This document shows, piece by piece, positions 42,395 to 55,509 of a stretch of DNA of 64,000 bases. Within the stretch, counting starts at the first letter, position 1. Each line of letters begins with the position of its first letter. The translations under genes were made by a program, and so were the position numbers. Below the pieces are notes generated by a model. It searched no databases and had not been told where the DNA came from. It was given only the letters and a program-made list of their open reading frames with translations. The DNA lies in contig NC_092705.1 in the NCBI RefSeq assembly GCF_964275005.1, positions 5,630,641 to 5,694,640 on the forward strand, written 5' to 3'. Source of the DNA: Diadema setosum (Eukaryota; Echinodermata; Echinoidea; Diadematoida; Diadematidae).

Positions 42395-42661
42395 TGTGTG
42401 TAGCCAACACCTGGATCCAACACCAGATCGGGGATGAATTTCATTATTTGTTTCAGTGTCCAATATTTGAAAATGATCGTAAACAAGCCATGAAGAAATT
42501 TTTTTGGAAACGACCTAATGTATATAAAATGGATCTTTTATTTAACCACTCTACGCAAACAGTGTTGCAACTGATTGACAAATTGCCCTACATCGACGTA
42601 AATAAGCACTGAATTGATCAGTGTTTTAGTAGTAGCCATGATAAAAAATCATGGGCGTACA

Positions 42662-42733
42662 TACTCGAGCAGGATTCGAACCTACGACCTCCTGATCACC
42701 GGACAGGCGTCATCTCCACTAGACCACCGAGCT
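42662..42733 (-). tRNA. tRNA-like cloverleaf, array unit 1 (SINE head or tRNA pseudogene)
   Basis: 72 nt. The A box TGGTCTAGTGG and B box GGTTCGAATCC fit the Pol III consensus. It folds with an acceptor stem of six pairs (first pair A-A), a three-pair D stem, an anticodon stem of four pairs plus a T-T and a five-pair T stem. The anticodon position reads GGT (Thr), but base 33 is C, not the invariant U, which argues against a working decoder. A TTTTTT run lies 13 nt past the 3' end inside a CCATGAT/ATCATGG hairpin, a plausible Pol III stop. Confidence 0.55.
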
Positions 42734-42928
42734 TTCGCCCGACAGCAAGTGTTGGTTCTAATCCTTATAGCATGCAGCAGGTACTGCTTTGTTATTCAAA
42801 TTCATGAAATTCTTCCGTCGAGATGTTTTCATTGCAACTGATTGACAAATTGCCCTACATCGACGTAAATAAGCACTGAATTGATCAGTGTTTTAGTAGT
42901 AGCCATGATAAAAAATCATGGGCGTACA

Positions 42929-43000
42929 TACTCGAGCAGGATTCGAACCTACGACCTCCTGATCACCGGACAGGCGTCATCTCCACTAGACCACCGAGCT
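42929..43000 (-). tRNA. tRNA-like cloverleaf, array unit 2
   Basis: Appears identical to unit 1 (42662-42733), including A and B boxes, the C33 oddity and the T6 run downstream. Confidence 0.55.
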
Positions 43001-43196
43001 TTCGCCCGACAGCAAGTGTTGGTTCTAATCCTTATAGCATGCAGCAGGTACTGCTTTGTTATTCAAATTCATGAAATTCTTCCGTCGAGATGTTTTCATT
43101 GCAACTGATTGACAAATTGCCCTACATCGACGTAAATAAGCACTGAATTGATCAGTGTTTTAGTAGTAGCCATGATAAAAAAATCATGGGCGTACA

Positions 43197-43268
43197 TACT
43201 CGAGCAGGATTCGAACCTACGACCTCCTGATCACCGGACAGGCGTCATCTCCACTAGACCACCGAGCT
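43197..43268 (-). tRNA. tRNA-like cloverleaf, array unit 3
   Basis: Same as unit 1; the downstream T run is seven bases here instead of six, the one difference between units. Confidence 0.55.
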
Positions 43269-43463
43269 TTCGCCCGACAGCAAGTGTTGGTTCTAATCCT
43301 TATAGCATGCAGCAGGTACTGCTTTGTTATTCAAATTCATGAAATTCTTCCGTCGAGATGTTTTCATTGCAACTGATTGACAAATTGCCCTACATCGACG
43401 TAAATAAGCACTGAATTGATCAGTGTTTTAGTAGTAGCCATGATAAAAAATCATGGGCGTACA

Positions 43464-43535
43464 TACTCGAGCAGGATTCGAACCTACGACCTCCTGATCA
43501 CCGGACAGGCGTCATCTCCACTAGACCACCGAGCT
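43464..43535 (-). tRNA. tRNA-like cloverleaf, array unit 4
   Basis: Same as unit 1. This is the unit nearest the inverted end segment, that is, the 5'-most unit in the direction of tRNA-like transcription. Confidence 0.55.
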
Positions 43536-44072
43536 TTCGCCCGACAGCAAGTGTTGGTTCTAATCCTTATAGCATGCAGCAGGTACTGCTTTGTTATTCA
43601 AATTCATGAAATTTGAATTTGAATTATTTACGTCGATGTAGGGCAATTTGTCAATCAGTTGCAATGAAAACATCTCGACGGAAGAATTTCATGAATTTGA
43701 AGAGCAAACAGTGTTGTTGAAATTAGTAAAGTTTTGTAAGGTAATTGTAGATTTTTTTGATAAACTTTGAAAAGATTTTCTTGTGTGTGATTATGAGCAT
43801 TTATAAATTAACCCTGTTAGAGGGTGATGTTTTTTCTTTTTTTTAGCTAACATGTATTGCAGGCACAGTGCCTGTTATAGAAAGTAGATAGTCTGATGTA
43901 TTCGTATATTCATCTCTATTCCATGTACATGTATATATCTTCATTGCATGTTTAGTTTGTCATTTAGATTGTTATTCTTGCCAGTTTGTATCCTACATGT
44001 ATTTATTTTTTACTCACATACCCCAGGAGGGTGATTGAGTTAATAAACTACAACTACAACTACAACTACAAC

Positions 44073-52000: not shown

Positions 52001-54169
52001 ATACGGGACTATGTACTGTATTTTTTTTTTTTTTTTATTATTCGATATAAGAATATTCTGATACAATCAAACCTGCTAACAAAGACCATACATGCGAGAA
52101 CAAAAGAAAAAGATGGTCTTTACAGACAGTTCATAGCCACATGGAGACACCACAGTTCAGCAGCATGTTAAGTGCCTTGAGAGTAGTTATATATGCCTAG
52201 CGGTCTTGCATAAGGCCAGTGGTTGTTATACCAATCTATTTTTTCACACCTTACTCAATACAAACTTACACAGACGCAGCATCCGATGCTCCGACATTGA
52301 TAAAAACAGCTACTGGTACATCAGCATTCCAGAGATTGCATCTATAAATGTCTTGTTACGTGGTTTTAACACTCAATCTGAAAGTGATTTATACCATACA
52401 ATTTATACCCTCAGGGCAAGTTAAAACTAAACTACATCTGACACAACTTTCTAAGAAAATCACACATCCGCTCCAGACTAAGTCATCAGGTCAAATTCCC
52501 CTGGACTTTAACCTACTATTTCTTTCAAAATGAAATCAAATTGATTAGGCTATCACACCGAGTACTATGTTAGATAGTAAATATCATTCGTAAGAAGTAA
52601 ATATTCTAGGAAAGAAACCTTTCTAAAGGACAATTATCATTTACCATTAAATAGACAAAATTCATACCAAGGATAACATTCAGGGCAGTGTTTAAAAAAA
52701 TCCATTCTTAAAATACTCAACTTCTAATAATATAGTTTCAATAATATAGTACTAGCTAGAATAGACACACTCAAACAGCATGCAGGATGTCCGCTTGTTG
52801 TCTTGGTAACCGGAAGGATGTGGTGTGCAGCATTGAAACAGGAAAAAATGGTCTCAGATTTTCTGCATGTAGCAGATAGGGCAAGGAATAGTATCCAATT
52901 TTGTAAACGAGGGGTCCCACTAATGTGGCTACATACATACGGCCTATATAGCTTACATATATTTGTATGTCATTATACTGCTAATCTTTGACAGGAATAC
53001 CACTTGGTAACCATAAAGTCACAGCCCCAATCTATTTTTGTACTTTGTGTGTGTGTGTTTTTATGAAACATCCCTAAAATAGTACAGTCCGACTTGAGCT
53101 CCGATGCAAGGCCAACATGTTACGCCACGAAAACAAACACTACAGTATATGCCTCGAAAAGAAGATGCTCGACGTACATCAACGGAGGATCCCTACACTC
53201 GCATATCGACCGGACGTCCATTCGCAAAAAACAAACAAGGATGTCCGATTATGATACGAGTGCTGGAATATCTCTCACGTGTATTCCCGCAATATTTGAC
53301 GTACGCCGAGATTTCAACGAGGTCTATCGTCCTGATATTTGGGCAAAAAAAGAACCTGATCTATCATCACACACACACACTCACGCACGCATAGAGAAAG
53401 TAAAAAAAAAAAGGAGCAAAATAAAGGCAAAATGACTCTTTCTCATCTTTAAAACTGCCAGCTAAGGGGTATCTCATACTGTCTAAATTATTTCAGATTA
53501 GCTGTCACCAAGTGCAGAAAAAAAAAAGATTACATTTCTTATCAGTTAGATTGCTGCTTCTGATTACCATTTCTACACACCTTCTGCAAATTGTGCACTT
53601 CCCTCAAGCAAATAACGGGTACGCTGACTTCAAAATGTTGCCTCACTTAATCGATCGGGCATGGAACTACATTGTATGGCATTTCTTGCATTTACAAGAC
53701 AAGTGAGTCTAGTGCAATTTGATAACATATATCCACTTTAAAACTTTATAATATGCCCTGTATTTGTCTATCAAATTAGATATCTTTAGATAAGGGGCAA
53801 AAGGGTGTATGGACTAATCCACAGTCAACTTTTATGTATTACATCCATGCTCTAAAACAAGGAATTTTCGCGGGGAAATTTTTTATCTAAACTCTTCATA
53901 ATATAAATCATCATTCCATTTCTCGCTCACTTGTGGACTTTGATACATGAGGATGGTACATCAAATATTACACACTTCTTCTGATTTTTTGTTATTGACA
54001 ACTAATTGCCAGCCCCTTTTCCTCTGACCCTTAGTGTGTTTCGCTCATTAATTGGCACAGATGTTAGGAAGCTAATCCCAAAAGAATAGAGATTACCTAA
54101 TCCCTTCTCCTTAATCTCTATCTTATCACCATGGCCTTTTTGTTGGACAAAGACGCACTGCTACTTTAG
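49035..54169. other. Long gene-poor stretch
   Basis: About 5 kb of AT-rich DNA with CA-type tracts (49083-49104, 53370-53385), T tracts (52020-52036) and only short open frames without family signatures. It may include distal 3' UTR of the minus-strand zinc-finger gene. I see no gene. Confidence 0.45.
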
Positions 54170-54226
54170 TGAAATTTTTCCATCGAGATTTTTTCATTGC
54201 AACTGATTGACAAATTGCCCAACATC
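54170..54226. repeat. Dispersed relative of the array unit junction
   Basis: GAAATTTTTCCATCGAGATT followed by TTTTCATTGCAACTGATTGA and CAAATTGCCCAACATC match the segment that joins the units of the array at 42568-43703, with about five differences. No tRNA-like part is present here. Confidence 0.7.
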
Positions 54227-55509
54227 ACTGCTACATTGTACGCTCAAAAGGGTGGGTAAACTTACAATTAGGTTATGTTTGGAGGAATCGTTCAACTGCT
54301 GCTGAGAAAGCATGACATGTTCCAGCTAAGTACCAGGGCAATAAAGGGTTACATTTGCCCCAAATCACAAATCGCAGTGAATTTCACTCAGAAGCATGTA
54401 GTGAATTCGTACCGTATCATCTATATAAAAGGCACGAAGTAGCATATAATCTCTCCTGTCAGATTCGTATAATTACTTTACATGATATACATAAAATATC
54501 ATTGAAGGATACATACCTTCATTCTTTTGCACTTTTTGAATGTGCTTCTCTTTGTCACCTTCAACGACAAAGGCAAACACAAACATTTTTCTCTCATGAC
54601 CTACTCTATCTGATAAATCACAAATTGTAAGGATAATATATGGCTACTTTGTAGCGACACCTTTGATAAACTTTCTTTATTCAAATTTCTGATGATATAC
54701 TTTCCAGGCACGGGATGAAACCATGGTTATTGCACTTAAATCCACTGGCATGACTGAAAGATCATCATTCCCACAATACATATCACTCAGGTTGCTTCAC
54801 CATAACCAGAAACTCCTTAACTCTTTGGCCACCCTTTTGGGAGAGTTTGAAAAACCCCCTGCACCCTTGCTGCCTACCCCCCGCCCCCCACTTCTGTAAG
54901 CAACAGAGTATAATTTCTGTGACACAAATTTCAAACTTTGGAAATTTATCAAGGTTGTTATTTTTTTTTAACCATCCTTTTCTGTGTATTAAAAAAAAAA
55001 CTGTGTCCTACCAGAAGCTGGTGCCTCACTACTTCAAATAATTCACACATACCGCAAAATGAATTGTACATAATCAATTACTACTGCGATTCACAATCCA
55101 GCCCTTTTCAAATGCAAACTGCCATATTACTGATGGGCAAGAATTTCAGAGTCCTATGGTTGCATGTACACAGTTGTTGTGATACAAGTTCAACTGTTTC
55201 AGCTTGTACTATCTCATCGATTCACTCTACCATCTTCTGGCATAACAACAAGGTTATCACTATATGAAGGCGTAAAGGTCAGGAAAGAAGGCAACCTTTG
55301 ATATTAAATGACTACATTTAGTAACAGCAGCTGATCTTGGGCTCATACATCTTAGAAGAGATGAATGGTCCACAATCCTCCATCGCAAACAAAATTCACC
55401 TCGAGAAATAAATAAGAAGCAAGTTTCTTATGTACAGACACTTTGAATAAATAAGGTGAGACATCATGATTTCCTCTAGCTTGAATTCTATCAGAAAGTA
55501 GTTCCTGAT
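54227..55509 (-). other. Probable 3' UTR of the zinc-finger gene
   Basis: No coding signature. A minus-strand AATAAA is present at 54681-54676, about 830 bases past the stop; it is a candidate poly(A) signal only. Confidence 0.35.

What the first reader, a model, noticed from the sequence alone, without database searches (positions are those of the whole stretch)
42555..43716. Tandem tRNA-like array inserted as one block into a LINE, with a 13-bp target duplication and an inverted end
Four near-identical ~267-bp units, each with a cloverleaf, A and B boxes and a T6-T7 run, sit between GCAAACAGTGTTG copies that split a LINE reading frame. The right end holds an inverted copy of the unit junction, as twin priming in LINE-driven insertion can give. 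SINEs normally insert as single units; a multi-unit block with an inversion would require a multimeric transcript or later expansion in place. Near-identity of units indicates a very recent event or active homogenisation.
Basis: partly seen in the sequence, partly recalled or inferred. Interest (0 to 1): 0.78.

Follow-up and report, generated by a model that had tools for sequence, protein, structure and literature searches.

The report
tRNA-carrying Penelope-style jumping repeat array
A 267-base, tRNA-bearing repeat in what looks like an echinoderm genome appears to jump as whole tandem arrays by a Penelope-type copying machinery, each new array being copied from a single unit, although no hammerhead ribozyme of the kind seen in similar elements was found in it.

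Summary
Four units (267, 267, 268, 242 bp), identical except for one A in a homopolymer, each with a tRNA-like cloverleaf, A and B boxes and T6-T7 on the minus strand, sit between exact 13-bp duplications, with an exact inverted unit-junction piece at the right end. It is one copy of a large family: 9,343 matches to a 34-bp core in a 913-Mb genome, 0 for the reversed control. I mapped 80 insertions. The inverted end is usual: both outer ends read inward, one starting near unit position 263 (A), the other near 224 (B, about 38 nt further out). Opposite types occur in 41 of 44 resolved two-ended copies. Target duplications are mostly 12-13 bp at a dyad-symmetric site. This fits Penelope-like elements (two adjacent internal start sites, both strands primed, a 30-40-bp 'tail') better than LINE twin priming. 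In young copies non-consensus variants are shared by all units, both arms included, so arrays seem to form anew from one monomer, most simply a circular RNA. No hammerhead was found. Best reading: a non-autonomous, tRNA-headed Penelope parasite that works like a retrozyme. Its autonomous partner was not found.

The parts
42555..42567 (.). left target-site duplication GCAAACAGTGTTG
42568..43613 (+). A arm: 3.9 head-to-tail units (267/267/268/242 bp) starting at unit position ~263-266 (A start site); read as first-strand cDNA, so the template RNA would be the minus strand (inferred)
42660..42734 (-). tRNA-like cloverleaf, unit 1 (called Thr-GGT by ARAGORN)
42927..43001 (-). tRNA-like cloverleaf, unit 2
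43195..43269 (-). tRNA-like cloverleaf, unit 3
43462..43536 (-). tRNA-like cloverleaf, unit 4
42716..42726 (-). A box TGGTCTAGTGG (unit 1; repeated in each unit)
   Evidence: sequence; box consensus recalled
42672..42682 (-). B box GGTTCGAATCC (unit 1; repeated in each unit)
   Evidence: sequence; box consensus recalled
42643..42648 (-). T6 run in the loop of a predicted hairpin just 3' of the tRNA part (unit 1; T7 in unit 3)
42792..42832 (.). interval from B (unit ~223) to A (unit ~263) in an internal unit: the 'tail' between the two start sites
43614..43623 (.). ~10-nt filler at the inversion junction
43624..43701 (-). B arm: exact inverted unit-junction piece whose outer end is at the B start site
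43704..43716 (.). right target-site duplication GCAAACAGTGTTG

Best explanation
A non-autonomous retroelement with a 267-nt monomer, moved in trans by a Penelope-like (PLE) reverse transcriptase. (1) The minus strand is made into RNA, plausibly from the tRNA-like pol III promoter (inferred). (2) The template behaves as an endless monomer, most simply a circular RNA (inferred). (3) A PLE-type dimer cuts both target strands at a dyad-symmetric AT-rich site 12-13 bp apart; each 3' end primes reverse transcription at one of two internal RNA sites, A on one side and B (about 38 nt away) on the other (end structure shown; enzyme inferred). (4) Each reverse transcriptase runs round the template for 15 to more than 1,600 nt, and the two same-sense cDNAs join at a variable point, leaving inverted arms, tandem units and 12-13-bp duplications (structure shown; steps inferred). 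The window copy has a ~1,046-nt A arm and a 78-nt B arm.
For: Ends: of 130 inward-facing outer ends 63 are A (mode 263), 59 B (mode 223-224), 8 other. Opposite types in 41 of 44 resolved two-ended loci, p = 1.6e-9; 21 of 23 in the contig-1 sample alone, p = 6.6e-5 (class limits set after seeing the data). Target: exact abutting duplications in 44 of 72 uncut loci, 12-13 bp in 31 of the 45 listed, consensus AAC|AA...TT|GTT symmetric about the centre. Published PLE biochemistry (PMC11167929, first two of four parts read): both strands cut and extended, AT-rich sites, initiation at two adjacent internal RNA sites whose interval is the genomic 30-40-bp 'tail'; inverted pLTRs in rotifer PLEs (PMC3846280, passages). 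PLE genes are present: 90 GIY-YIG matches, some in frames of about 1,000 codons; 4 of 4 frames tested carry RVT_1 plus GIY-YIG, RVT_1 below its cut-off in one. Template: a non-consensus extra T in 9 of 9 units of both arms of L085, another variant in 13 of 13 in L087; 0 differences between full-length opposite arms of L062, L085, L013; recurrent non-CpG, non-homopolymer variants in all pieces 30 times and in a subset 22 times, 0.34 of 52 'all' expected if units were independent.
Against: No autonomous partner sharing the A-B region was found in 34 GIY-YIG loci, each seen only in part; most copies could not be fetched. No ribozyme that could make a circle was found: no Rfam hit but tRNA and a sub-threshold Yfr20, no CTGANGA core. 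The T6 run lies between the pol III promoter and the A and B sites, so a normally terminated pol III transcript would lack the priming sites. Three of 44 loci have two ends of one type (L042, L074, L080), and L038 may be another; 7 of 72 have one end elsewhere and 21 of 72 show one inward arm only, L040 among these having a 14-nt B tail. 27 of 72 lack a strict duplication. Only 27 of 45 loci have arms closer than the mean of unrelated arms; over all 45, recurrent variants are shared by both arms 36 times and in one arm only 105 times. Three different insertions beside the B site (L042, L046, L084) are unexplained. A linear multimeric RNA is not excluded. No RNA data.
Confidence: 0.75

Rival explanations
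1. Same PLE-type insertion, but the template is a linear multimeric read-through RNA of an existing array rather than a circle.
For: PLEs themselves are arranged and transcribed as tandems (PMC11167929); source arrays here can be homogeneous; no circle-making feature was found.
Against: Unit-specific mutations of source arrays should pass on as mixtures seen at several loci; several young arrays that differ from each other are internally uniform (L083 6 all / 0 subset, L085 4/0, L018 3/0; L083 and L018 cut by fetch). Others are mixed (L026 2/4, L080 0/9). Arms up to 1,652 nt would need transcripts crossing six T-runs.
Confidence: 0.25
2. A tRNA-derived SINE moved by a LINE with twin priming.
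For: tRNA head with A and B boxes, target duplications of 10-16 bp, insertion into what reads as a LINE remnant (by eye).
Against: Two fixed start sites, one at each end, in 41 of 44; symmetric two-nick target; no poly-A or simple-repeat 3' tail at either end of the window copy; tandem, circularly permuted copies.
Confidence: 0.06
3. In-place tandem expansion and homogenisation (unequal exchange, gene conversion) of a single inserted unit.
For: Units are near-identical within many loci; one locus (L014) has a ~602-bp higher-order period that looks like later amplification.
Against: Variants carried by the + arm and recurrent in at least 3 loci are also in the - arm 36 of 90 times, 9.2% expected; in L085 and L087 every unit of both arms has the same variant. 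Unequal exchange does not homogenise inverted arms (hairpin gene conversion could).
Confidence: 0.05
4. A foldback or terminal-inverted-repeat DNA transposon with an internal satellite.
For: Inverted ends, target duplications, internal tandem repeats.
Against: The two ends differ by a ~38-nt extension; arm lengths vary from 15 to 1,652 nt; the inversion point varies; duplication length varies 10-16 bp.
Confidence: 0.02

Closest known systems
Penelope-like elements (PLEs), e.g. Poseidon of Anolis (PMC11167929, parts read) and Penelope families of Adineta vaga (PMC3846280, passages)
   Same: Tandem or partial-tandem copies, inverted arm at one end, optional 30-40-bp tail, two internal reverse-transcription start sites, both target strands used, AT-rich target
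   Different: No ORF; 267-nt monomer; tRNA-like module; no hammerhead found; 12-13-bp duplications at a symmetric AAC|..|GTT site; A and B divided between the two ends
Metazoan non-LTR retrozymes (PMC7229834 and PMC7761336, passages)
   Same: Monomers of ~170-400 nt in tandem arrays, target duplications longer than the 4 bp of plant retrozymes, PLEs named as likely movers, circular RNA
   Different: Retrozymes carry type I hammerheads, not found here; here a tRNA/pol III-type module is present; circles not tested here
tRNA-derived SINEs (recalled)
   Same: tRNA-like head with A and B boxes; short, non-coding, thousands of copies
   Different: Tandem and inverted arms, two fixed start sites, no simple-repeat 3' tail at the window copy
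Schistosoma SMalpha SINE-like repeats (PMC8490949, passages)
   Same: Short (335-bp) SINE-like repeat; a pol III promoter is recalled for it, not seen in a call
   Different: SMalpha carries a hammerhead

Membership tests
Penelope-like element (non-autonomous derivative) | two internal start sites 30-40 nt apart giving an optional tail | tested here: met
   A ~263, B ~224; 41 of 44 resolved copies have one of each
Penelope-like element (non-autonomous derivative) | both target strands prime; inverted arm | tested here: met
   both outer ends face inward in 51 of 72 uncut loci, 44 of them with both ends classed A or B; 21 of 72 show one arm only
Penelope-like element (non-autonomous derivative) | tandem or partial-tandem copies with target duplication | tested here: met
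Penelope-like element (non-autonomous derivative) | shares recognition sequence with an autonomous GIY-YIG/RT element of the same genome | tested here: inconclusive
   PLE genes present; no convincing similarity in 30 + 4 partial loci; one weak 37-nt match recurs in six loci, in the sense opposite to that expected; most copies not fetched
Penelope-like element (non-autonomous derivative) | hammerhead in the repeat (usual in PLEs) | tested here: not met
   no Rfam hit at E up to 10, no CTGANGA core on either strand. Hammerhead-like cores are seen by pattern in GIY-YIG loci such as L095, L103, L121, but Rfam at gathering scored none in 8 such loci, so Rfam may miss minimal ones
Retrozyme | self-cleaving hammerhead in each unit | tested here: not met
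   with the limit of Rfam shown
Retrozyme | tandem units of ~170-400 nt | tested here: met
   267-nt unit in tandem
Retrozyme | circular RNA in cells | not testable with these tools
   no RNA data
tRNA-derived SINE | tRNA-like head with A and B boxes | tested here: met
tRNA-derived SINE | single unit with a LINE-matching or simple-repeat 3' tail | tested here: not met
   ends are A/B sites, copies are permuted tandems; a match to a LINE 3' end elsewhere was not searched

The most novel reading that the evidence does not exclude
A new class of circular-RNA retroelement without a known ribozyme: the tRNA-like module stands in for the hammerhead, both as promoter and as the handle for excision or ligation of a monomer circle (for example by tRNA-processing enzymes), and a PLE dimer copies that one circle from both target ends at once, one polymerase starting at site A and the other at site B.
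Probability: 0.3. Interest if true: 0.85.

Novelty: new variant of a known kind. Interest (0 to 1): 0.62.

Why it matters
The abstract of PMC11167929 says relatively little is known about how PLEs move. This family offers thousands of likely natural insertion products in one genome. The 80 mapped here suggest that the two start sites are used one per target strand, give a symmetric target, and show that in young copies both cDNAs carry the same variants. It also suggests that PLEs have SINE-like pol III parasites, and that tandem units can be copied from a monomer without a known ribozyme, which makes the question of how PLE and retrozyme templates become endless directly testable.

Tried and rejected
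Known ribozymes: Rfam at E up to 10 on the array, at gathering score on the whole window, at E up to 1 on five diverged loci: tRNA plus sub-threshold hits (Yfr20, MIR5048, mir-297, sR9, EBv-sisRNA-1). Hammerhead core by regular expression: none in the unit. Partner by DNA similarity: 30 GIY-YIG loci with 1.5-kb flanks and four more 3' pieces. The best hits were 24 bits: L120 (41 nt, 68%, E 0.04 in a four-sequence set) and a 37-nt, 73-76% match overlapping the A-B interval at one place in L096, L097, L098, L102, L106, L113 (E 0.67-4.9), in the sense opposite to that expected; I treat both as chance-level, the second as a weak lead. A junction-only DNA search returned 0 matches; the tool skips very common words, and the pattern search then gave 9,343. 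My notes first said that the window unit equals the family consensus; that sample was biased towards A at unit 210, and against the contig-1 sample (37 loci) it differs at that one site. I also first called some variants private to one locus; one search shows them in a second or third locus too (L087's also in L014 and L015, L085's in L082, L062's in L059). Circle closure scar: positions with indels in 4 or more loci all lie at or beside homopolymer runs, but L042, L046 and L084 have three different insertions beside the B site, unexplained. Viral contigs: 0 exact matches to a 31-bp core. The empty LINE site elsewhere in the genome and a count of the tRNA module alone could not be run (tool busy each time). 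Literature: none of the titles and abstract starts listed describes a tRNA-headed PLE derivative; these lists are capped, the library lacks most subscription papers, and Repbase or Dfam could not be searched. Five papers were opened: PMC11167929 (abstract and first two of four parts), PMC7229834, PMC3846280, PMC7761336 and PMC8490949 (passages).

Full report
WHAT IS THERE. Four head-to-tail units (267, 267, 268, 242 bp) lie at 42565-43613. They differ only by one A in an A6 run. Each carries a tRNA-like cloverleaf on the minus strand, an A box TGGTCTAGTGG, a B box GGTTCGAATCC (box consensus recalled) and a T6 or T7 run in a predicted hairpin loop. The array starts at unit position ~263-266 straight after GCAAACAGTGTTG. 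At 43613 it breaks off; ~10 nt of filler follow, then an exact inverted piece across the unit junction (43624-43701), 'GA', and the second GCAAACAGTGTTG. The flanks read to me as the 3' end of a decayed LINE frame that runs on once the insert and one 13-mer are taken out; Pfam did not recognise the short peptide.

GENOME AND HOST. The window lies in a 912.7-Mb assembly of 102 contigs. A mitochondrial contig has cox1, cox2 and nad4L frames with tRNA-Arg and tRNA-Lys, and cox1 reads well with AAA as asparagine. That points to an echinoderm, perhaps a sea urchin (code and gene order recalled). The species was not identified.

A LARGE FAMILY. A 34-bp core (unit ~264 to 30) has 9,343 matches with up to 3 mismatches (4,869 + 4,474 by strand; 0 for the reversed pattern). 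I studied 80 loci: the window, 39 places from the similarity search (fetched; that search scored 40 of 180 candidates and favours copies with A at unit 210), and 40 of the 41 clusters made by the 100 listed core matches, all exact and on contig 1. The second set favours young copies. Eight loci were cut by my fetch limits (L009, L014, L016, L017, L018, L079, L083, L087) and are left out of the pair counts, leaving 72.

THE END RULE. Outer ends that face inward start mostly at one of two places: A (63 of 130 ends; positions 251-265 and 3, mode 263) or B (59 of 130; 214-232, mode 223-224); 8 are elsewhere (limits set after seeing the data). Among the 72 loci: A/B or B/A 41, A/A 1, B/B 2, one end 'other' 7, only one inward end 21. 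So 41 of 44 resolved pairs are opposite (p = 1.6e-9); in the contig-1 set 21 of 23 (p = 6.6e-5). A later look at the 21 one-ended loci found a 14-nt B tail in L040 (for the rule) and a possible second B in L038. In the 40 clean two-piece loci arms run from 15 to 1,652 nt and the inversion point varies.

THE TARGET. An exact duplication of at least 10 bp abuts the ends in 45 of 72 loci (one, L037, is unit sequence and should not count); lengths 12 (20), 13 (11), 14 (6), others 8; swapped flanks give 10 of 1,410. Oriented by end type (six loci of unclear type left as fetched), the site reads AAC|AA...TT|GTT, symmetric about its centre: each strand appears to be nicked after a T run, leaving 3' ends that both prime (inferred). 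The 27 loci without a strict duplication include old and complex copies, and at least one, L040, in which looser limits show 13 bp.

WHAT MATCHES THIS. A biochemical study of a PLE (PMC11167929; abstract and first two of four parts read) reports cutting and extension of both strands, AT-rich sites, and initiation at two adjacent internal RNA sites, the interval being the genomic 'tail' of 30-40 bp; it saw no difference in start site between top and bottom strands. Here the interval is about 38 nt, and the two sites are divided between the ends, which that study did not report in the parts I read. Inverted pLTRs, optional tails and trans-moved foreign sequence between pLTRs are described for rotifer PLEs (PMC3846280, passages). 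PLE genes are present in this genome: 90 GIY-YIG matches (150 of 247 candidates scored), and 4 of 4 frames tested hold RVT_1 plus GIY-YIG, RVT_1 being below its cut-off in L116. None of 34 partly seen loci convincingly shares the A-B region. So the partner is inferred from the insertion signature, not shown.

ONE MONOMER PER INSERTION. Full-length opposite arms are identical in L062, L085 and L013 (0 of 267, 267, 260), where unrelated arms differ by 3-5% on average. Over 45 loci with overlapping arms, 27 have arms closer than the mean of unrelated arms; recurrent variants are in both arms 36 times and in one arm only 105 times; of the 90 carried by the + arm 36 are also in the - arm, where 9.2% would be expected. 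In the 22 loci with arms within 3% the counts are 24 shared and 12 not; that subset was chosen on the same distances. The window's own arms gave 3 differences of 90, but that alignment ran on into the duplication; the 78-nt tail itself is exact. A non-consensus extra T marks 9 of 9 units of L085, another variant 13 of 13 units of L087, a lengthened T-run 7 of 7 in L083, and a third variant 7 of 8 units of L062, the eighth having a deletion there; each of the L085, L087 and L062 variants also occurs in one or two other loci. Excluding CpG and homopolymer sites, recurrent variants are in every piece of an array 30 times and in a subset 22 times (25 arrays of at least 3 pieces); independent units would give 0.34 of 52. 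Without those exclusions the counts are 36 and 82; CpG decay such as unit 210 is a likely reason (inferred). Positions with indels in 4 or more loci lie at or beside homopolymers, so no common joining scar is seen, though three loci have different insertions beside the B site. The simplest template is a circular RNA; a linear multimer from a uniform array remains possible.

STRAND AND TRANSCRIPTION. Since both arms extend from target 3' ends as plus strand, the RNA template would be the minus strand, the sense of the tRNA module (inferred). T6 sits between the promoter and the A/B sites, so productive templates need read-through or a different promoter; this is the weakest step. In the contig-1 set I counted 78 exact B boxes, 72 exact A boxes and 81 T-run hairpins, against 89, 77 and 94 unit pieces that cover those places (a separate count). 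The tRNA and non-tRNA parts decay at similar rates (0.033 and 0.035; off CpG sites 0.023 and 0.032). In the predicted fold A lies at the 3' foot of a 6-bp hairpin and B near a 4-bp hairpin, which recalls the stem-loop start site in PMC11167929; this was not tested by covariation.

VERDICT. A real, recent, ordinary member of an unusual family. It works like a Penelope-driven retrozyme, but it cannot be filed as a retrozyme because no hammerhead was found, nor as a LINE-driven SINE because the ends do not fit. The window unit differs from the contig-1 consensus at one site.

Noticed in passing
window 54156-54237: A tiny old truncated copy of the same family (unit ~236 to 25; two matches of 91% and 96%) between 12-bp direct repeats CACTGCTACTTT / CACTGCTACATT that differ at one base (repeats read by eye).
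   Followed up: partly
L014 57-1701: A higher-order array: ~602-bp period made of two units with a partial overlap (unit 143 joined to 77), all in one orientation in the stretch fetched, unlike the usual two-armed copies.
   Followed up: no
L062, L085, L087: Large two-armed copies with about 3-7 units per arm (L087 cut by the fetch) that could form long hairpins.
   Followed up: partly
L042, L046, L084: Three different short insertions in the unit beside the B start site; possible joining scars.
   Followed up: no
G000 C3:29106708/29112058, C6:22898973/22902239, C20:21195396/21201293: Pairs of GIY-YIG matches in opposite orientation 3-6 kb apart: autonomous Penelope-like elements here may also have head-to-head inverted copies.
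   Followed up: no
L095, L099, L103-L105, L107-L109, L121: Minimal hammerhead-like cores (CTGATGA..GAAA) beside GIY-YIG genes of this genome, found by pattern; Rfam at gathering score listed none in the 8 loci tried, which included L095 and L103.
   Followed up: partly
G000 C4:41435814: A partial GIY-YIG match (2-40) inside an unusually long open frame of 2,572 codons.
   Followed up: no
window 44046-44072: An (AACTAC)n run, 4.5 copies, at what reads as the 3' end of the target LINE.
   Followed up: no
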